Shown: piece after piece, positions 2,576 through 38,992 of the stretch
Layout of the letters: every line of letters starts with the position of its first letter
Numbering within the stretch: the stretch's first letter is position 1
IMG/VR virus record: IMGVR_UViG_3300044546_001398
Span: 1-41,624 of that record
From: a virus
Strand: one strand, 5' to 3'
Length of the DNA stretch: 41,624 nucleotides
Made by a program: the position numbers and the translations under genes
Notes under the pieces: model-generated
Databases searched by the model: none
The model's input: the letters and a program-made list of their open reading frames with translations, nothing else
What the model was told of the DNA's origin: nothing

Positions 2576-3373
2576 ATGTCTAATCTTATCAAGAATTGGA
2601 ATGATCGCGCTATCCGTATTCGCAGCGATCGCTATGTTTCGTTAACCGATATGGCGCAAGCCAGTGGTAAATTGTTTGGTCATTGGAATAACCTCAAGTC
2701 CACAAAGTCTTATTTAAAAGCTCTTGAAAGCGTTATCCAGATCAAGATAACGGACTTGGTGCAAGTCATTCAAGGTGGCGACTCACAAAATCAAGGCACA
2801 TGGGGACACCCTAAAGTAGCGATCCGTTTTGCTCAATGGTGTAGTGATGAGTTTGCGGTACAAGTAGATATTTGGACTGATGAACTCATGACGACTGGTA
2901 AAGTCGAGTTAGTTCCATCGCAACCCGCACTACCTCAAACATTTTCTGAGGCATTGAGGCTTTTGGCTTCTGAGATAGAAGCTAAGGAAGCGCTCAAAGA
3001 AGAGATCAAAGTCTTGCAACCTAAAGCCGATGTGTATGATACCGTCATGGACTCCGAGACTTGGCTAGATGTGCGTGAGTTGTTTAAATGTCTCGCAATT
3101 CCCAAATATAAAGAGAAGGATTTTAGAAAGTTTCTTTGCAGTCAAGATGTCAAGATTCTTAGCAAGGATACTAATCAACCCTATGCGGATTTTGTGCAAC
3201 GTGGCTTTGCAAAACTAACGCCTGTGACATTGCCTAATGGCGCGGTATATCAGAAGCCCGTGTTTAGTTGGAAAGGTTGCGAACGCATTATCAAGGCATT
3301 GCGAGGTCATGGTGTGATCATGGATGGTCATCAGATCGATCTCAATCTTGGCTATAAAGTTGTGAAGGTGTAG
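2576..3373 (+). CDS. KilA-N domain antirepressor-like protein
   Basis: 265 residues. The N-terminal ~110 residues are a KilA-N DNA-binding domain: YVSLTDMAQ near residue 21, a GG-x-GTWGHPKVAIRFAQWC stretch near residues 67-90, typical of phage and poxvirus KilA-N. A short linker rich in Glu and Lys (about 120-145) leads to a C-terminal module (about 150-265) almost identical in order to that of the minus-strand BRO protein at 31556: DTVMDS-x-TWLD, CLAIPKY, LTPVTLP, KGCE-x-II, ALRGHGVIM. Such proteins usually act as antirepressors or regulators during phage development. A third KilA-N protein (38276) shares only the N-domain. Start chosen at ATG 2576. Confidence 0.85.
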   Translation: MSNLIKNWNDRAIRIRSDRYVSLTDMAQASGKLFGHWNNLKSTKSYLKALESVIQIKITDLVQVIQGGDSQNQGTWGHPKVAIRFAQWCSDEFAVQVDIWTDELMTTGKVELVPSQPALPQTFSEALRLLASEIEAKEALKEEIKVLQPKADVYDTVMDSETWLDVRELFKCLAIPKYKEKDFRKFLCSQDVKILSKDTNQPYADFVQRGFAKLTPVTLPNGAVYQKPVFSWKGCERIIKALRGHGVIMDGHQIDLNLGYKVVKV

Positions 3374-4671: not shown

Positions 4672-4721
4672 GCAACAAAAAGACCATTTTCCCGATGACA
4701 GGAAAATGGTCTTTTTGTTGC
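4672..4721. terminator. Strong bidirectional terminator
   Basis: Perfect 21-bp inverted repeat (4672-4692 with 4701-4721) around an 8-base loop, with A-run and T-run at the outer stem (GCAACAAAAAGACC / GGTCTTTTTGTTGC). It separates the plus-strand J-domain operon from minus-strand transcription arriving through the CRISPR array. Confidence 0.85.
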
Positions 4722-4807: not shown

Positions 4808-5279
4808 CTTCCAATCAGCCGATCGCTTAACCACTAGTTTCACCGTCTAAAAGCTCCAATGGATTTTATGAATATTCACTTCCAATCAGCCGATCGCTTA
4901 ACCAGAAGCTTCACCTCAATGATTGGCAATGGCTCTATGATGCTTTCTGCCTTCCAATCAGCCGATCGCTTAACCAGAAGCTTCACCTAATTCTCTCAAT
5001 AGTATATTGTCGATGTCGGTCTCTTCCAATCAGCCGATCGCTTAACCAGAAGCTTCACCTGCTATTCACATCAGGGATCGGGATACCATCAAACTTCCAA
5101 TCAGCCGATCGCTTAACCAGAAGCTTCACCTTGGACTAATGCCTCTCTCTCTGACTCTGATATCCCTTCCAATCAGCCGATCGCTTAACCAGAAGCTTCA
5201 CCCACTGGTTAGCCATTTAAAAAGCTTTGCGGGCGCTTTGCGCTTCCAATCAGCCGATCGCTTAACCAGAAGCTTCACC
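4808..5279 (-). CRISPR. CRISPR array, 7 repeats of 37 bp, 6 spacers
   Basis: Seven 37-bp repeats start at 4808, 4879, 4951, 5023, 5094, 5166 and 5243. Plus-strand form begins CTTCCAATCAGCC, carries a HIP1-like GATCGC core and ends AGAAGCTTCACC. Repeats 2-7 are identical. The copy at 4808 has three changes near its plus-strand 3' end, marking it as the old (trailer) end. Spacers are 34, 35, 35, 34, 35 and 40 bp and share no sequence with each other. Read on the minus strand, each repeat ends GATTGGAAG, similar to the ATTGAAAC/G ends common in CRISPR repeats. That orientation matches the degenerate trailer and the adjacent nuclease gene. The leader-proximal repeat overlaps the nuclease stop codon. 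No cas1/cas2 nearby. Confidence 0.95.
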
Positions 5280-6938
5280 AGACAGATCCCAAAAACCAAG
5301 CTGAGCGCCAATATTAGGATCGATTTGCGCGGATCGCTTACGAGATTGCAATTTAGAGTTGGCTTTAGATAGTGATTTTAAATCTTGCCATAGCTCAAAG
5401 TCTTGTGGTGATTGGTTTTCAGGGTTTGCGCGAGTGGTTAGACTATTTACAGCCCCGCTTTCGCGGTTGATTGCGGTAGATGTTTCTCCTACCGATCCTT
5501 TCTTACTCTTGCGAGTCTTACTCGGTTGGCGCTTCTTCCCATGCGTTGCATGATCCACGCCCTTAAATTCCCCCGATGAAGCGGGGTATGGTTTCAAAAC
5601 CAAGCCTTTAAAAGCAACATTACGGATAACGGTTGAGGCGTTGCTATCTGCGTTGTCACCATGACCACAATTCAAGCATTTAAAAACAGCTTGAGATGGT
5701 CGAAACTCTTCGGAATAGTAGCCACACTGAGAGCAACCTTGAGAAGTGTGCGGTGCGGGTACTTTCACAAATATTCTTTCTGATGCTTTAGATTTAGTCT
5801 CTAGCATCGTTTTTGTTTTGCCGATCGCCACATCAAGAAGCGCTTTATTTAAGCCAGCTTTTGCAGCCGCGCCATTAGGTAGAAACGCGCCATTTTCACC
5901 AGCTTTCGCCTTTGGTGCGCGTACCATATTTTTAACCTTGGTATCCTCAATGGCAATGCTTTGATATTCACTCACATACTTGGATGTGAGCTTATGAATA
6001 AAGCGATCGCGTTGCCTAGCGATTTTAAGATGCACTTTAGCTAGTTTAGAGCGTTTAGCTTTTAGACGGTTAGAGCCATCTTTTGAGCGTGAGATAGAGC
6101 GCTGAATACGAGCTAATTTCTTAGCTTGCAATTTGGCATAGCGTTTTGATTTATGCAATCTTCCATCACTATCAGCAATAGGAGCGACTACACCAAAATC
6201 TAAGCCTACTTCTTGCTTTTTTGCTGGTTTAACGGGCTTTACGTCTACCGTGCTAGTGAATTGCACATAATAGCCGTCAGCCTTTTTGACGATGCGTACA
6301 ATTGTATGATTACCAGCATAGCGACGGTAGAATCCCTTGCATTTGATTGACCCTAGCTTTGGATAGTCAATTAATGCATTGTCATTACCCAAGGGCGAAA
6401 TATTAACGTATATCCGACCATTGCCGTTAGAAAAGCTTTCTAATTTATCAGCTTTCTTTTTGTAACGTGGTCTGCCTTTTTTCCCCTTGCGGTACTGAGT
6501 CCATGCATCAATTAGGTTATCCACAACAGATCGCCGTGATTCGCTATCGATAGGGTGCAAAAAATCAGGACATCGCATATTAGCGATAAAGCGATAATTT
6601 TTAACGTGCTTAAATGGCTCTTCAATATCCCGATGTTTGCGGATGTCGCATTTATCAGGATAGTAAGCACAGCAAAGCCCGTATTGATTATCAGGATTTA
6701 CATACTCAATCCCGTCGATTTTGCATGATTTTCGCCATTGCCATACTTCAGGACTATACTCTGCCCATTCTTGTTTTGCCCTCCAATAACGTTGCTGATC
6801 TTCCTCAAGCAGACTTAAACCAACATTCCATACCCATTTAAGTTGAGTAAGCCACATATCAATTTGTGCGCTTTGCTCAATCGTGGGAGACAACTTAAAT
6901 TCAGCTATCTTTTTAGTAGTGGCTTCATTGCTAGTCAT
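5262..6938 (-). CDS. TnpB/Cas12-like RuvC nuclease fused to a CRISPR array
   Basis: 558 residues. N-terminal ~230 residues are the TnpB/OrfB helical and beta region (LKWVWNVGLSLL near 33, YRKGKKGRPRYKKK near 149). The split RuvC is complete: Asp247 in GLDFG, Glu331 in IAIEDTKV, Asp431 in NADSNAS, so cleavage is expected. A zinc ribbon sits between motifs II and III (Cys402, 405, 421, 424). After motif III there is a ~115-residue basic tail ending SGEASG, whose last codons and TAA stop lie in the first CRISPR repeat. TnpB usually has about 350-450 residues, so the protein is long for TnpB and in the range of small type V (V-U/Cas12f-like) effectors. No TnpA, Tn7 genes or adaptation genes. Divergent XRE regulator upstream suggests repression. 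Plain IS605-family TnpB remains the alternative. Confidence 0.85.
   Translation of the reverse strand: MTSNEATTKKIAEFKLSPTIEQSAQIDMWLTQLKWVWNVGLSLLEEDQQRYWRAKQEWAEYSPEVWQWRKSCKIDGIEYVNPDNQYGLCCAYYPDKCDIRKHRDIEEPFKHVKNYRFIANMRCPDFLHPIDSESRRSVVDNLIDAWTQYRKGKKGRPRYKKKADKLESFSNGNGRIYVNISPLGNDNALIDYPKLGSIKCKGFYRRYAGNHTIVRIVKKADGYYVQFTSTVDVKPVKPAKKQEVGLDFGVVAPIADSDGRLHKSKRYAKLQAKKLARIQRSISRSKDGSNRLKAKRSKLAKVHLKIARQRDRFIHKLTSKYVSEYQSIAIEDTKVKNMVRAPKAKAGENGAFLPNGAAAKAGLNKALLDVAIGKTKTMLETKSKASERIFVKVPAPHTSQGCSQCGYYSEEFRPSQAVFKCLNCGHGDNADSNASTVIRNVAFKGLVLKPYPASSGEFKGVDHATHGKKRQPSKTRKSKKGSVGETSTAINRESGAVNSLTTRANPENQSPQDFELWQDLKSLSKANSKLQSRKRSAQIDPNIGAQLGFWDLSGEASG
5455..5586 (-). ncRNA. Candidate structured guide scaffold overlapping the nuclease 3' coding end
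   Basis: Read on the minus strand, four hairpins follow one another: CCCCG/CGGGG (5571-5586), ACTC-GCAA-GAGT (5505-5516), CGGTAG/CTACCG (5474-5494) and CCGC-GAAA-GCGG (5455-5466). Two are capped by GNRA tetraloops. They lie in the low-complexity C-terminal tail of the nuclease gene, upstream of and in the same direction as the first repeat. TnpB omegaRNAs are known to overlap the 3' end of tnpB and to be followed directly by the guide. By analogy this may be an omegaRNA- or tracr-like scaffold. Boundaries are guesses. Confidence 0.5.
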
Positions 6939-7002: not shown

Positions 7003-7212
7003 ATGGCTTTAAGAAATATAGTTAAAGAATTTCTGGAAGAAAGAAAAATAACCGCTTATCAGTTCGTCAAAGAAACGGGGATAAGCGGTACAACTGGCTA
7101 TGAGTTAGCGCGTAACCCTTGGCATATACCATCTACAGGCTCAATCGCTAAAATCTGCGATGCCTACAAGATTCAGCCATCTAAAATTATTGTTTGGGTA
7201 GAGAATGAATAA
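7003..7212 (+). CDS. Small XRE/Cro-type regulator
   Basis: 69 residues forming one helix-turn-helix domain: VKEFLEERKITAYQFVKETG (helices 1-2), GISGTTGYELARN as recognition region, then SIAKICDAYKIQPSKII (helices 4-5). The pattern, residue spacing and size match minimal Cro/C1-type repressors. It is transcribed away from the TnpB/Cas12-like gene across a shared operator region, so it probably represses the nuclease and itself. It converges with the tape measure gene, whose stop is 30 bases beyond. Confidence 0.75.
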   Translation: MALRNIVKEFLEERKITAYQFVKETGISGTTGYELARNPWHIPSTGSIAKICDAYKIQPSKIIVWVENE

Positions 7213-18141: not shown

Positions 18142-18316
18142 TAGTTTCACCAGCATTACTTAGCAAAATCTTCAAAGCACCCCGCAAAATTGGGAGGCGC
18201 TCACTGTCTGGACAACGCAAACTATTAGCATATTTAATCTGCCTCGCAATCTCATCTAGGAATTTGCGGTATTCAGTAGGCGGAATTGAGTTGTAATCGT
18301 TAATGTTTTTAGTCAT
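18131..18316 (-). CDS. Small hypothetical protein
   Basis: 61 residues starting MTKNINDYNSIPPTEYRKFL, mostly helical. Its ATG overlaps the dCTP deaminase stop and its end overlaps the DUF1599-like gene, so it is embedded in a tightly coupled operon. Family not recognised. Confidence 0.55.
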   Translation of the reverse strand: MTKNINDYNSIPPTEYRKFLDEIARQIKYANSLRCPDSERLPILRGALKILLSNAGETNEL

Positions 18317-18843
18317 TATCCTTTACTCTCCGTTGTATCTAAATCACCGTTATACCGTCCAGTCTTTGAGTAATCATGCCTAGGACAAGCCGTCTCAGCA
18401 AAAACAATCTGTCCGATCCTCATAAGTGGATAGATAGGTTGCCAAGCCCAAAGACGATGATTAAGCAACTCCAAAGTCAGCTTTGAATTATTAAATCCAC
18501 CATCAATCCAAACAGCAAGTACATGACCCCATCCTGATCGCCCTCTACTTGACTTAAGCCTAAATTCCGCTGAGTAATTAGGCGGCATGTTAAACGTCTC
18601 ATAAGTGCAGGTCAGTATAAAGCTTAGTGGCGATACCCAAAACGGGTTTGATTCTGAGTATTTGGTCAAGTCATGAGTCGTAAACTCTTGACCTGTCAAC
18701 CATCGCTTAAGCCAGTTATTTTCAGTTTTGAGCGTGTAGCCTATCCGCACATCGAGGGATTGTGGGTTAAGCATTGCTTTGTCAAAAGGCACAATAACGC
18801 CACGACTGCAAAGCTTTTCAATTTCCCAATCAACTAGCGTCAT
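18316..18843 (-). CDS. dcd: dCTP deaminase
   Basis: 175 residues, normal length for the family. Matches the trimeric dUTPase/Dcd fold: NPQSLDVRIGYTL (about 27-39), EFRLKSSRGRSGWGHVLAVW (about 93-112), IDGGFNNSKLTLELLN with the catalytic-type Glu, YPLMRIGQIVF, and C-terminal YSKTGRYNGDLD that closes over the nucleotide. It converts dCTP to dUTP in the cytosol, feeding dTMP synthesis during phage replication. Whether it also has dUTPase activity cannot be told. Overlaps the XRE gene upstream (ATGA) and the small gene downstream. Confidence 0.88.
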   Translation of the reverse strand: MTLVDWEIEKLCSRGVIVPFDKAMLNPQSLDVRIGYTLKTENNWLKRWLTGQEFTTHDLTKYSESNPFWVSPLSFILTCTYETFNMPPNYSAEFRLKSSRGRSGWGHVLAVWIDGGFNNSKLTLELLNHRLWAWQPIYPLMRIGQIVFAETACPRHDYSKTGRYNGDLDTTESKG

Positions 18844-20271: not shown

Positions 20272-20838
20272 ATGACACGAACTAAACCACGGGAATCATA
20301 CGATCCTAAATGGGAACCGCCCAAAACTTCATCAGAATTTAAAGCTAAGAAGATTCTGGAAGATCACGGCTTTTCAGTAATTCATAACCAATGCTTATAT
20401 GGTTACTATCCCGATCTTAGGATTGCTGGCACAAAGGTACTAATTGAAATTGATGGCGGTTACCATTCATCTCGCAACCAAAAAACCAAAGACGCAAAGC
20501 GCACCAAGAATTTAGAGAGCTATGGCTTTATCGTTTTGCGATTCACCAATGCACAGGTTAAGCATCCAGATCTACTCATTACCAAAGTTCGGGCGGCGCT
20601 GAATATTCGTGAAATCAAGAAACCTCAAATCGTTGCGATCGTTGCGGATGCTTCAGATTTAAAAAAGATGGTAGACAAGAAAACCAAGGATAATACTTTT
20701 CACTTGATAGCCAAGAAAGCCGCTAAGACTGCAATTAGACAAGAACGTAATGGCAATCGCAAAGCTGAGCGCAACGGGCTTAAAGCTGAAAACGCTAGGC
20801 TAAGGAAAGAACTTAAGGAGTTAAAAGCTTCTTTATAA
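20272..20838 (+). CDS. DUF559/Vsr-like PD-(D/E)XK endonuclease
   Basis: 188 residues. Residues about 19-110 fit the short-patch-repair-like nuclease fold: EFKAKKILEDHGF, YYPDLRIAG with the PD, VLIEIDGGYHSS with the E-x-D pair, and ESYGFIVLRFTNAQV. Catalysis of DNA nicking or cutting is expected from the family (DUF559/Vsr/MutH-related). The C-terminal ~75 residues are a basic, Lys/Arg-rich coiled coil (RNGNRKAERNGLKAENARLR). Possible roles are DNA repair, a homing-like function or host DNA degradation. Confidence 0.75.
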   Translation: MTRTKPRESYDPKWEPPKTSSEFKAKKILEDHGFSVIHNQCLYGYYPDLRIAGTKVLIEIDGGYHSSRNQKTKDAKRTKNLESYGFIVLRFTNAQVKHPDLLITKVRAALNIREIKKPQIVAIVADASDLKKMVDKKTKDNTFHLIAKKAAKTAIRQERNGNRKAERNGLKAENARLRKELKELKASL

Positions 20839-24844: not shown

Positions 24845-24846
24845 TA

Positions 24847-24918
24847 TGGCGGTGACTGGAATCGAACCAGTGTTCTTGGGATTATGAGACCCACGAGATG
24901 CCACTTCTCCACACCGCT
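24847..24918 (-). tRNA. tRNA-Met(CAU) (or tRNA-Ile2 with CAU)
   Basis: 72 bases. All arms fold: acceptor AGCGGTG/CACCGCC with an A-C mismatch at 1-72, D stem GAGA/TCTC, anticodon loop CTCATAA (anticodon CAT), five-base variable loop, T stem ACTGG/CCAGT with loop TTCGATT. No encoded CCA. CAU could be elongator Met or Ile decoding AUA after lysidine modification. Confidence 0.8.
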
Positions 24919-24920
24919 AA

Positions 24921-29681: not shown

Positions 29682-29779
29682 TTCAAGAGGTAGGAATCGA
29701 ACCTACGTCATCCGCCTAATATGTACACTGGTCGGTTTTACCCTACAGTACGGCTGCGATACCACTTCGCTACTCTCGA
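29682..29779 (-). tRNA. tRNA-like gene with expanded anticodon/variable region
   Basis: 98 bases. Acceptor TCGAGAG/CTCTTGA (one G-U), D stem GCGA/TCGC and T arm GTAGG-TTCGATT-CCTAC all pair. The stretch between D and T arms is 48 bases instead of about 22. A long hairpin (GTACTG paired with CAGTGTAC) sits inside a GCC/GGC clamp, so no ordinary anticodon arm forms. CTGTA could give anticodon GTA (Tyr). It may be a type II tRNA with an odd arm, an interrupted tRNA or a decayed one. Confidence 0.5.
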
Positions 29780-31230: not shown

Positions 31231-31566
31231 ATGGCAGCTAAGAAAGATCCTCGCCTTGCTAAAGCTGGAGTAGAAGGCTATAACAAACCAAAGCGCACTC
31301 CTAAGCATCCTACTAAGTCCCATGTAGTTGTTGCAAAAGAAGGCGACAAAGTTAAGTTGATCAGATTTGGTGAACAAGGTGCGGATACAGCAGGTAAATA
31401 TAAAAAAGGCGAACCCGAATCGGTTACTCAGCAACGCAAAGACTTTAAAACCCGTCACGCTAAGAATATCGCTAAGGGTAAATTGTCTGCGGCTTGGTGG
31501 TCAAATAAAATTAAATGGATGTGGATAATCAGCTTAACCACATCCATTTTTGGGCTTAACTCTTAA
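31231..31566 (+). CDS. Widespread small phage protein (DUF6321-like)
   Basis: 111 residues starting MAAKKDPRLAKAGVEGYNKP. The block KSHVVVAKEGDKVKLIRFGE, QGADTAGK and RHAKNIAKGKLSAAWW is a highly conserved protein of many phages and some hosts; function unknown. Relatives usually end close to a KVKW motif. Here, after NKIKW, the frame runs on through a terminator hairpin and adds about 14 residues (MWIISLTTSIFGLNS). The stop has probably been lost. Confidence 0.7.
   Translation: MAAKKDPRLAKAGVEGYNKPKRTPKHPTKSHVVVAKEGDKVKLIRFGEQGADTAGKYKKGEPESVTQQRKDFKTRHAKNIAKGKLSAAWWSNKIKWMWIISLTTSIFGLNS
31513..31549. terminator. Bidirectional terminator inside the end of a reading frame
   Basis: AAATGGATGTGG pairs with CCACATCCATTT (12 bp, 13-base loop). 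T runs on the plus side, and T-rich sequence on the minus side, make it work for both the plus gene at 31231 and the convergent BRO gene. Confidence 0.8.
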
Positions 31567-32383
31567 CAACCTTAAACCCAAGATTCAGATCGATTTGGTG
31601 ATTACTCATGATCACGCCATGACCTCGCAAAGCATTGATTATTTTCTCGCATCCCTTCCAGCTAAATACGGGTTTATGGTAAATGTTGCCAGTCGGTAGA
31701 GTCACAGGCGTTAGTTTAGCCAATCCGCCATGAATCCAAGTGCTATAAGGTTGACTGGTTTCCTTACTCAAAATCTTGACATCTTTGTGACATAGGAAAG
31801 CGCGGAAATCCTTCTCTCTATATTTGGGAATTGCAAGGCACTTGTGAAGCTCTCGAATATCGAGCCATGTGTCAGAATCCATCACGGTGTCATAGATGAT
31901 CGCTTTCGGCTCCAAAACTTGGATCTCATCTTGCAATGTTTGGTTAGCTTCTAAGAGCTTTTGTTTCTGATCCTCAAGATCGGCGGCGAACCGCAAAGCC
32001 TCTGATAAGGTTTGAGGGATTGCGGGTTGAGTAGGAGCAATTTCATATTTGCCAGTCTTGCGGATTGTGGGCAAAATCTCTTCACATACCCAATCCTGAA
32101 AAGGTTCGGCTTGAGGTTTACGAGACTTCATGGTCAAGCGATACAAGCCAGATTCGGAAACTGCTAAAAGCCTTGTGGTGTCTGGATCATCACTTGAAGT
32201 TATACCCATCTCGTACAAGTTCAAAACTTGCTTTTCGCGATCTTTGAGAGGGTTGCAAGCTTTGCTAACATTCCTTATATCTAAAATCTCACATACATCT
32301 GTAGCTACAAACCAAGGCTCGTTATTAATTGAAACGATGCGAACCTGTTGAGAATTGAATGCAAATTGAGTTAAACTTGTCAT
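31556..32383 (-). CDS. BRO-N antirepressor with shared C-terminal module
   Basis: 275 residues from ATG 32383 (MTSLTQFAFNSQQVRIVSIN). The N-terminal ~100 residues are a BRO domain: EPWFVATDVCEILDIRNVSK, TRLLAVSESGLYRLTMKSRK and FQDWVCEEILPTIRKTG. A coiled linker (about 118-145) joins a C-terminal module (about 160-275) that is over three quarters identical by eye to the C-terminus of the KilA-N protein at 2576 (DTVMDSDTWLDIRELHKCLA, ALRGHGVIM). BRO proteins act as antirepressors in phages. Convergent with the gene at 31231. Confidence 0.87.
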   Translation of the reverse strand: MTSLTQFAFNSQQVRIVSINNEPWFVATDVCEILDIRNVSKACNPLKDREKQVLNLYEMGITSSDDPDTTRLLAVSESGLYRLTMKSRKPQAEPFQDWVCEEILPTIRKTGKYEIAPTQPAIPQTLSEALRFAADLEDQKQKLLEANQTLQDEIQVLEPKAIIYDTVMDSDTWLDIRELHKCLAIPKYREKDFRAFLCHKDVKILSKETSQPYSTWIHGGLAKLTPVTLPTGNIYHKPVFSWKGCEKIINALRGHGVIMSNHQIDLNLGFKVVKS

Positions 32384-32544
32384 ATTGACCTGCGTTGTTA
32401 AGTATAAGGTTGATCGGCGGTCGGTAGTGGAATACGCGATCGCCATTAATATTTTATCACTTTTTAATATCAGTAATCTAGCGATATCGCCATCAAGGGG
32501 CGCGTTGATGCTAGAATCGCTGTAAATTCGTTTATATAGAATAT

Positions 32545-38275: not shown

Positions 38276-38992
38276 ATGACTAATCTTATCAAACATTCGT
38301 ACAACGGCGCGATTATCTCCCAAGAATCCGATGGCTATGTTTCGCTTACTGATATGGCGAAAACTCACAATAGATTGGTTGCTGATTATCTGAGAACTGA
38401 TACCACTAAAGCTTATTTACAAGCGCTTTCTTTGGATATGGGAATTCCCATATCGGCTCTAGTCAACACTTTCAAGGGCGGTAAAGGGAAACAAGGGACA
38501 TGGGCACATCCTGACATTGCGATCGATTTCGCTCAATGGTGCAGCCCCACTTTCAAGGTTTGGGCTAATCGTGTTTTGCGTGGAGTGATTACTCAAGAAA
38601 AACCAGAACCCAAAAAAGCGATCGCCTATTACTCTGATCGCTGTGCAGACATCCGAAAGAATTTGGTAAAGACAAAAGGTCATTGGTGTGTCATTGAGAA
38701 ATGCAATCACCTTTTGCTGGAAGTTGAAAAAGCTGGTTATCCCATTGATAGGTACGATTTGTTGGATAGCAGCATTGGCAAGAGGTATGCACAATACCGC
38801 CGTGAGATTGGCTACTCAGAGCCTACGCAGTCAGCGCACTATCAGCTACCACATTGCCCTCATCCTGTAACGATCGCTTGCTATCCAAGCAGTGAGCTTG
38901 GTATTTTCTCTGATTGGCTTGAAGGTATTTATGAAGAGCGATATCTCAATAAATATCTGCAAGATAAGTACGGGAAACTGGCAAAAGTTTAA
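38276..38992 (+). CDS. KilA-N domain protein, second C-terminal type
   Basis: 238 residues. Residues about 1-110 are KilA-N: GYVSLTDMAKTHNRLVADYL and KGKQGTWAHPDIAIDFAQWC are very close to the protein at 2576. The C-terminal half (about 120-238) is different: RCADIRKNLVKTKGHWCVIE, a helical section and a Cys/His-rich YQLPHCPHPVTIACYP before the closing helices. It matches no other protein here. DNA-binding regulator, perhaps an antirepressor. Located between head genes, so it may be a recent insertion. Confidence 0.8.
   Translation: MTNLIKHSYNGAIISQESDGYVSLTDMAKTHNRLVADYLRTDTTKAYLQALSLDMGIPISALVNTFKGGKGKQGTWAHPDIAIDFAQWCSPTFKVWANRVLRGVITQEKPEPKKAIAYYSDRCADIRKNLVKTKGHWCVIEKCNHLLLEVEKAGYPIDRYDLLDSSIGKRYAQYRREIGYSEPTQSAHYQLPHCPHPVTIACYPSSELGIFSDWLEGIYEERYLNKYLQDKYGKLAKV

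What the first reader, a model, noticed from the sequence alone, without database searches (positions are those of the whole stretch)
4808..6938. Phage-borne TnpB/Cas12-like nuclease joined to its own CRISPR array, with no adaptation genes
Seen: seven 37-bp repeats lie directly downstream of, and in the same direction as, a 558-residue RuvC nuclease with all three catalytic acids (Asp247, Glu331, Asp431) and a four-Cys ribbon. Known: type V-U/Cas12 effectors evolved from TnpB, but most known miniature effectors sit in bacterial genomes, and cyanobacterial Cas12k is inactive and Tn7-linked. Here the residues are intact, no tns or cas1/2 genes are present, and the locus sits in a phage. Inference: a self-contained RNA-guided defence or inter-phage competition system.
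Basis: partly seen in the sequence, partly recalled or inferred. Interest (0 to 1): 0.92.

Follow-up and report, generated by a model that had tools for sequence, protein, structure and literature searches.

The report
Cyanophage mini-CRISPR, type V-U2
A virus of cyanobacteria carries a tiny CRISPR system of a known but little-explored kind, and comparison with about sixty relatives suggests that the guide-RNA scaffold lies inside the nuclease gene itself and that some of these viruses aim the system at rival viruses.

Summary
In detail: seven 37-bp repeats (4808-5279) follow a 558-residue RuvC nuclease gene (5262-6938, minus strand), and the first repeat contains the gene's stop codon. The kind is known: the protein is a deep-branching type V-U2 (C2c8) effector, and a phage-borne V-U2 locus was published in 2018 (cyanophage CL131).
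New here, from 60 viral V-U2 loci (59 with an adjacent array):
(1) The coding region after the Zn ribbon encodes a structured, covarying RNA. In groups d, f and part of e it holds long anti-repeats, like a translated tracrRNA. In the window's group only a 6-bp core is seen.
(2) Protospacers of group-c arrays carry 5' GTT/GTC (14 of 16). The other groups do not show it clearly (1 of 3).
(3) Five phage-borne spacers match other V-U2 phages, one inside a rival's effector gene.
(4) Shared spacers lie gene-distally in 11 of 15 array pairs, although 21 phage records show no Cas1. For group c, host type I-D adaptation proteins may act in trans.
The window's own six spacers match nothing in the collections searched. 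Its targets, PAM and activity are inferred from relatives. Verdict: a new, deep variant of a known kind.

The parts
5262..6938 (-). V-U2 (C2c8-like) effector gene, 558 aa, RuvC D247/E331/D431 and four-Cys Zn ribbon
5243..5279 (-). repeat 1 (gene-proximal); overlaps the last 18 nt of the ORF including the TAA stop
5166..5202 (-). repeat 2
5094..5130 (-). repeat 3
5023..5059 (-). repeat 4
4951..4987 (-). repeat 5
4879..4915 (-). repeat 6
4808..4844 (-). repeat 7, gene-distal, 3 mismatches
4845..5242 (-). six spacers (5203-5242, 5131-5165, 5060-5093, 4988-5022, 4916-4950, 4845-4878) between the repeats; no protospacer found
5440..5599 (-). structured RNA region inside the 3' part of the ORF (putative tracrRNA/omegaRNA scaffold), aligned with 12 relatives
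   Evidence: covariation; synonymous-codon shuffles; helices 3-5 largely not kept in the window
5475..5493 (-). hairpin-1 (helix 6), fully paired in the window; one pair changed on both sides in L008/L009 (U-A to G-C) although the encoded residues change
5468..5473 (-). short anti-repeat core complementary to 6 nt near the 3' end of the repeat
   Evidence: weak taken alone: the whole-repeat test is not met
4672..4721 (-). perfect 21-bp inverted repeat with a T run, possible terminator after the array
   Evidence: not listed by the terminator scan
5283..5303 (-). codons of the C-terminal QLGFWDL motif (family Q-[LM]-x-[LIFM]-[WF]), beta-clamp-like
   Evidence: 24 of 31 V-U2 rows, 0 of 14 TnpB rows; the meaning of the motif is recalled, not tested
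7003..7212 (+). divergent Cro/C1-type regulator (HTH_26), also next to the effector in L008

Best explanation
A phage-encoded type V-U2 CRISPR system. Effector gene and array are probably one transcription unit that ends at the inverted repeat 4672-4721. The part of the mRNA that codes for the probably disordered tail after the Zn ribbon also serves as scaffold (tracrRNA), a remnant of the TnpB omegaRNA, which overlaps the 3' end of tnpB. Its short anti-repeat pairs with the 3' part of each repeat, so that the effector is loaded with a 34-40 nt guide. The effector then cuts DNA beside a short 5' motif (GTY in group c; unknown for the window's group), mainly in phages that compete for the same cyanobacterium. 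Spacers are added at the gene-proximal repeat by adaptation proteins of the host, in group c probably those of type I-D. Shown by computation: family membership, architecture, covarying RNA in the coding region, the group-c motif, phage-on-phage spacers, polarity of array change. Inferred: RNA processing, cleavage, adaptation in trans, and the whole targeting side for this particular phage.
For: Family: top PADLOC model Cas12u2, E 6.7e-107; 31 V-U2 rows including the window separate from 14 TnpB rows, support 100/97. Architecture: 59 of 60 viral V-U2 loci have at least 2 repeats by the gene end; in the 60th (L030) the contig ends first. RNA: 14 of 33 pairs change on both sides, 0 of 500 shuffles reach this, slid structures reach 1-6; long anti-repeats in groups d, e (L034) and f, duplex -43.0, -33.3 and -41.3 kcal/mol, 0 of 300 shuffled repeats each. 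Motif: GTY before 15 of 19 protospacers, 14 of 16 for group c, background 0.027; shuffled spacers give 1 match in 413. Phage-on-phage spacers: L014 sp15, L040 sp2, L026 sp1, L023 sp1, L058 sp1. Turnover: L008, whose effector is 96% identical in the alignment (92% in tblastn), shares no spacer with the window; polarity in 11 of 15 array pairs. Purifying selection: 44 synonymous against 16 non-synonymous codon changes, window against L008, codons 1-440. Adaptation: Cas1 in 0 of 21 phage records; the type I-D repeat of Microcystis (PMC11855584, table passage) differs at 3 of 37 bases from the V-U2 repeat of Microcystis LSC13-02 and at 7 from the main phage group-c repeat; type I-D PAM GTN, GTH in Microcystis (PMC10212523, passages).
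Against: The window's six spacers match nothing. In its group a and in group b the whole-repeat anti-repeat test fails: as good or better with 233 of 300 shuffles for the window, 118 for L008, 210 and 248 for two group-b loci; there only the 6-7 nt core remains, and the cores were chosen by eye. The GTY motif rests mostly on two Microcystis arrays (14 of the 19 spacers); outside group c it stands before 1 of 3 protospacers (L026 GTT, L023 TGG, L058 AAT with four perfect targets), and it could reflect adaptation rather than the effector. The window's repeat is unlike the type I-D repeat (20 of 37 bases differ), so host type I-D adaptation is not supported for it. The searched targets were the fetched loci, mostly V-U2 phages, so 'the targets are V-U2 phages' is partly built in. 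An intact RuvC triad does not prove cutting: four of eight Cas12m variants chosen in PMC11013384 have a typical D-E-D triad (passage), while its abstract says Cas12m protects by binding. NCBIfam C2c8 score 303 is below its cut-off of 350, and the general guided-TnpB model passes its own (192.5 against 100). No Cas1 was found in the draft Microcystis genome with the 55-repeat array.
Confidence: 0.57

Rival explanations
1. The effector binds but works mainly as an RNA-guided silencer or regulator of phage or host genes, as proposed for CL131 and as shown for Cas12m, rather than as a cutter.
For: Small effector; the CL131 authors suggest a gene-regulatory role; Cas12m protects by binding (start of abstract), and four of the eight Cas12m variants chosen there have a typical D-E-D triad, so an intact triad is no proof of cutting.
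Against: The RuvC acids are kept across the phage groups; the protospacers lie in or across ORFs in 14 of the 15 cases inspected, with helicase-like, tape-measure-like and effector genes among them (labels by eye except the effector), not at evident promoters.
Confidence: 0.18
2. Counter-defence: the phage uses the system against host genes or against resident prophages and satellites, not against rival phages.
For: One CL131 spacer partly matches a DNA primase pseudogene in Nostoc piscinale; phage-encoded CRISPR-Cas with such a role exists (Seed et al. 2013, as cited).
Against: The window's array gave only weak hits (E 9e-4 to 1e-2) in 7 of 386 cyanobacterial genomes; of these seven places only one reached 24 identities with any spacer (25 of 34). 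The matches found in the family are in phage DNA, though the target set was phage-biased.
Confidence: 0.18
3. The array is a passenger: an ordinary TnpB gene with an unrelated or decaying CRISPR array beside it, with no joint function.
For: No targets for the window's spacers; weak anti-repeat in group a; one repeat degenerate; the general guided-TnpB model fits.
Against: 59 of 60 relatives keep the pairing, at nearly constant spacing within each repeat group (exceptions L037, L039, L066); separate from 14 TnpB rows; cognate anti-repeats in groups d, e, f; purifying selection; no TnpA.
Confidence: 0.07

Closest known systems
Type V-U2 CRISPR-Cas of cyanophage vB_AphaS-CL131 (MG209611)
   Same: Phage-borne C2c8 effector, array downstream in the same direction, no other cas genes around it; effector 40% identical in the alignment, 36% in tblastn
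   Different: Different repeat; array 256 nt after the ORF, whose tail ends early compared with L034, against repeat 1 overlapping the stop here. The authors found no tracrRNA and left the direction open; here a scaffold and a direction are proposed, and CL131 aligns with them
C2c8 of Microcystis aeruginosa NIES-2481 plasmid p1 (23 repeats)
   Same: V-U2 effector with adjacent array; C-terminal QLTIWD motif
   Different: On a host plasmid; repeat of the type I-D-like group c; effector 36% identical
IS200/IS605 TnpB (ISDra2, ISFba1)
   Same: Best Foldseek matches of the model; guide RNA overlapping the 3' end of the gene (recalled)
   Different: No TnpA found, a real CRISPR array, separate from 14 phage TnpBs in the tree
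Cas12p, LaTranC and Cas12f (V-F)
   Same: Next folds after TnpB. LaTranC is described as a TnpB-CRISPR intermediate (recalled); V-U2 to V-U4 have been assigned to V-F (passage in PMC11013384)
   Different: Different lineages; in the phage V-U2 groups the scaffold appears to be still translated
Cas12k (V-K)
   Same: GTN PAM (table row), as the GTY of group c
   Different: Cas12k is catalytically dead, RuvC residues are present here; no tns search was run

Membership tests
Type V-U2 (C2c8) | Best match to C2c8/Cas12u2 models | tested here: met
   PADLOC Cas12u2 356.7 bits, top of 18, closely followed by a Cas12f model with 353.2
Type V-U2 (C2c8) | NCBIfam C2c8 curated cut-off (350 bits) | tested here: not met
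   303.4 bits; an annotation threshold rather than a biological definition, and a sign that the window lineage is divergent
Type V-U2 (C2c8) | Groups with V-U2 effectors and not with TnpB | tested here: met
   31 rows against 14 TnpB, 100/97; V-U3, V-U4 and other Cas12 were not in the tree, and long branches are present
Type V-U2 (C2c8) | Adjacent CRISPR array | tested here: met
Type V-U2 (C2c8) | No own adaptation genes | tested here: met
   Cas1 and Cas2 not found in the window and in the 69.6-kb relative, both possibly fragments
Type V-U2 (C2c8) | crRNA-guided interference | not testable with these tools
   needs experiment
TnpB superfamily (guided TnpB) | NCBIfam guided_TnpB cut-off 100; Pfam OrfB_IS605 and TNB domains | tested here: met
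   192.5 bits; Pfam 67.2 and 50.4 bits, both over cut-off. V-U2 effectors are TnpB-derived, so this does not exclude V-U2
IS200/IS605 transposon TnpB | NCBIfam IS200 TnpB cut-off 425 | tested here: not met
   165.2 bits
IS200/IS605 transposon TnpB | TnpA (Y1) partner in the record | tested here: not met
   PF01797 in 0 of 2 records; many TnpB elements lack TnpA (recalled), so this alone is weak
Cas12k / V-K CAST | Inactivated RuvC | tested here: not met
   D247, E331, D431 present
Cas12k / V-K CAST | tns transposition genes nearby | not tested
   no search was run

The most novel reading that the evidence does not exclude
V-U2 is a living intermediate between TnpB and Cas12: the omegaRNA scaffold is still translated as the effector's tail, the repeat is a copy of the scaffold's 3' edge (in repeat groups a, b and d it still spans the stop codon), and cyanophages run it as a weapon against rival phages, topped up with spacers by host adaptation proteins and perhaps tethered to replication forks by a C-terminal beta-clamp motif.
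Probability: 0.32. Interest if true: 0.88.

Novelty: new variant of a known kind. Interest (0 to 1): 0.6.

Why it matters
In a 2024 review the V-U2 row gives no PAM and, as I read columns whose headings were not shown, no tracrRNA (PMC11641405); the published phage case was left without guide scaffold, direction or mode of action (PMC6293099). The comparison gives these testable values: a GTY motif for group c, a scaffold inside the gene's 3' end, a leader side at the gene, and rival phages as targets. It offers a concrete view of how a transposon guide RNA can become tracrRNA plus CRISPR array, and it suggests that arrays without adaptation genes are kept up to date from outside. The effector rows compared are 466-624 aa long, small enough to interest genome engineering.

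Tried and rejected
Spacer targets for the window: phages and plasmids by blastn with short words (best E 2), 40 V-U2 phage records (only the arrays of the three group-a records and four matches of 14-18 nt), 386 cyanobacterial genomes (7 weak hits, looked at again), IMG/VR with one exact 18-20-mer of each of the six spacers. The 22 hits outside the phage's own twin record agree beyond the seed only at chance level. One exact seed per spacer cannot see mismatched seeds.

A long anti-repeat for the window: a scan of both strands of the whole window found matches driven by the HIP1-like GCGATCGC; rejected. Whole-repeat duplex for groups a and b: not better than shuffled repeats.

Folding window 5243-5590 as one strand gave z -0.96, not significant. 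Synonymous shuffles show excess structure 420-240 nt before the stop in 5 of 7 genes (z -2.3 to -4.5; L043 0.1, L042 -1.4), but some windows elsewhere score as high (window at -1470, z -3.8; L008 at -1050, z -4.2); supportive only. In one search four of five covariation measures are reached by 0 of 500 shuffles, the fifth (further pair types) by 8; the structure came from the same alignment.

Protospacer count: 20 of 413 spacers had a full-length match. I first dropped two. On re-check one of them (L058 sp1, listed as L121 sp1) is a true spacer between perfect repeats with four perfect targets and 5' AAT, and is counted now; the other (L060 sp4) is the common trailer sequence behind group-d arrays and stays out. 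Hence 15 of 19, not 15 of 18.

Array pairs: 16 found, L090/L096 dropped (same record twice); the 15 left are not independent, and L060's last 'spacer' in two of them is the trailer. L104 was left out of the tree because my script found no ORF. The anti-repeat cores were chosen by eye; its L020 entry is not in the sequence, L036 is mis-anchored, group d is not in it; its p of 9e-5 is optimistic. The 'after insertion' codon comparison is out of register and not used. The first genome-contig scan found no relative; the second gave 4 loci. One search timed out and was rerun smaller.
Full report
WHAT IS THERE. The window is a 41,624-bp linear IMG/VR record. It carries phage tape-measure, terminase, portal, major head and scaffold genes. 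HIP1 octamers occur 51 times against 0.3 expected, which points to a cyanobacterial host. A 69.6-kb record (G001) is nearly the same phage (99.99% over 11.7 kb, 99.95% over 20 kb, 97.7% over 3 kb) and has the same array. The array is as described: seven 37-bp repeats and six spacers on the minus strand, directly after a 558-aa RuvC gene. The first repeat overlaps the last 18 nt of that gene, stop codon included.

WHAT THE PROTEIN IS. Best profiles are Cas12u2 (PADLOC, 356.7 bits, with a Cas12f model close behind at 353.2) and V_cas_c2c8 (NCBIfam, 303.4 bits, below its cut-off of 350). The general guided-TnpB model passes its cut-off (192.5 against 100); the IS200 TnpB model does not (165 against 425). 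In an IQ-TREE tree the 31 V-U2 rows, window included, are split from 14 TnpB rows with support 100/97. The tree holds 22 of the 60 viral V-U2 loci; other Cas12 families were not in it. Window and L008 sit alone on a long branch (1.14 changes per column). An AlphaFold2 model is of modest quality (pLDDT 60.4, pTM 0.52; residues 447-558 under 50). Its best structural matches are TnpB, then Cas12p, LaTranC and Cas12f.

RELATIVES. A profile scan of IMG/VR gave 79 loci, the best 80 of 105 relatives. I class 60 as V-U2 and 19 as TnpB-like, by score and repeats. Of the 60, 59 have at least two repeats at the end of the effector gene and 57 at least three; in the exception, L030, the contig ends first. 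There are six repeat groups, a to f. In cells V-U2 is rare: 4 of 386 cyanobacterial genomes matched at E 1e-70 or better, 3 over the family cut-off, and one of the four was the chosen centre. The published precedent is cyanophage CL131 (PMC6293099; abstract, passages and the whole CRISPR section read). Its authors found no tracrRNA and left the direction open. Viral V-U-type and TnpB-like effectors beside arrays are also reported from landfills (PMC12607003, passages), and competition between viruses through CRISPR is a known idea (PMC11656645, passages).

GUIDE SCAFFOLD INSIDE THE GENE. Aligning about 160 nt from after the Zn ribbon in 13 loci (groups a, b, e) gives a consensus fold of 33 pairs, 14 with changes on both sides. 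With identical rows merged, 92.5% of cells are paired; 0 of 500 shuffles reach four of the five measures, 8 reach the fifth; slid structures give 1-6 double-changed pairs. The structure was derived from the same alignment, which favours it. The last hairpin (helix 6) is fully paired in the window; one of its pairs is U-A in the window and G-C in L008/L009, although the encoded residues differ. Helices 3 to 5 are largely not kept in the window and L008. In groups d, e (L034) and f a long anti-repeat follows: -43.0, -33.3 and -41.3 kcal/mol, none of 300 shuffled repeats as good. Group c and the other e members are intermediate (13, 57 and 71 of 300; 57 and 21 of 300). Groups a and b fail (window 233 of 300, L008 118, two b loci 210 and 248). 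In a and b a 6-7 nt core directly after that hairpin fits the cognate repeat. Over eight representatives cognate cores pair at 3.62 of 4 variable positions, non-cognate at 1.88; the cores were picked by eye. My reading is that the effector's tail is translated scaffold RNA, the state expected if the TnpB guide RNA was split into scaffold and array.

TARGETS AND MOTIF. Of 413 unique spacers from V-U2 arrays, 20 have a full-length match with at most 7 mismatches in 1.6 Mb of fetched DNA. One is trailer sequence (L060 sp4). Of the 19 left, 15 are preceded by GTT or GTC (background 0.027, p 1e-20): 14 of 16 for group c, 1 of 3 outside it. Shuffled spacers give 1 match. Nine of the 19 come from one Microcystis genome, five from a Microcystis plasmid, five from phages (three of these five with GTY). 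The phage cases: L014 sp15 on a group-d phage; L040 sp2 inside the group-d effector gene, beside its anti-repeat; L026 sp1 and L023 sp1 on L031's phage; L058 sp1 (group d) with perfect matches in four other phage records, 5' AAT, in a tape-measure-like gene (label by eye). The searched DNA was mostly V-U2 phages, so other targets were hardly visible. The window's own spacers match nothing.

ADAPTATION. No Cas1 in 21 phage records, window included. Yet L008, with a 96% identical effector, has none of the window's spacers. Where arrays share only some spacers, the shared ones lie at the gene-distal end in 11 of 15 pairs (pairs not independent); L015/L019/L021 and L032/L035 are clear cases. The Microcystis type I-D repeat in PMC11855584 (table passage) differs at 3 of 37 bases from the Microcystis V-U2 repeat, at 7 from the main phage group-c repeat, but at 20 from the window's and 23 from group b's. 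Type I-D uses GTN, GTH in Microcystis (PMC10212523, passages). For group c, host type I-D adaptation proteins acting in trans explain both repeat and motif, and the GTY may then come from adaptation rather than from the effector. For the window's group the source of spacers is open. No Cas1 was found in the draft genome with the 55-repeat array; 5 of 6 V-U2-bearing genomes do have Cas1, one of them only a weak 24.3-bit match.

C-TERMINAL MOTIF AND REGULATION. Q[LM]x[LIFM][WF] stands in the last 40 residues of 24 of 31 V-U2 rows and 0 of 14 TnpB rows; shuffled tails 0.06%. It looks like the bacterial clamp-binding motif (recalled). A divergent Cro/C1-type regulator sits beside the effector here and in L008. 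Promoter-like sites are not more common than chance.

LIMITS. Nothing here shows RNA processing, cleavage or interference. An intact RuvC triad is no proof of cutting: four of eight chosen Cas12m variants have one, yet the paper's abstract says they protect by binding. Literature statements rest on my searches in an open-access library without most subscription journals; the work on LaTranC is known to me only by recall and by structure titles.

Noticed in passing
L013 3998-5506 (Chroococcidiopsis plasmid pCHRO.01): An annotated C2c8 with the first RuvC Asp replaced, no Zn ribbon aligned and no repeats found nearby: possibly a dead, regulator-like derivative.
   Followed up: partly
L016 and L017: Two V-U2-type arrays of different repeat groups (c and d) within about 4 kb of one phage record.
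   Followed up: partly
L060-L062, behind the group-d array: The trailer of the group-d array is followed by a group-c repeat: a mosaic junction between two array types.
   Followed up: no
L011 (CL131) about 4390: The CL131 effector ends early relative to L034, yet the codons for the QLTLW end are still present downstream.
   Followed up: partly
window 1-41624: HIP1 octamer GCGATCGC 51 times against 0.3 expected: the phage shares this cyanobacterial motif.
   Followed up: yes
window 2576-3373, 31556-32446, 38276-38992: Antirepressor-like genes: the first two match PHROGs regulator/anti-repressor families; the third looks similar by eye only.
   Followed up: partly
window 20272-20838: DUF559 endonuclease-like gene.
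   Followed up: no
window 18316-18843: dCTP deaminase-like gene.
   Followed up: no
window 29682-29779: A tRNA found by Rfam (46.6 bits) but not by ARAGORN, besides tRNA-Met at 24846-24919.
   Followed up: no
L037 6347-6700: A deletion seems to join the scaffold region almost directly to the repeats, removing the end of the effector ORF.
   Followed up: no
L008 about 6497-6567: 69-nt extra in-frame stretch in the tail region compared with the window, holding GATTGGAAG as at the repeat's 3' end.
   Followed up: partly
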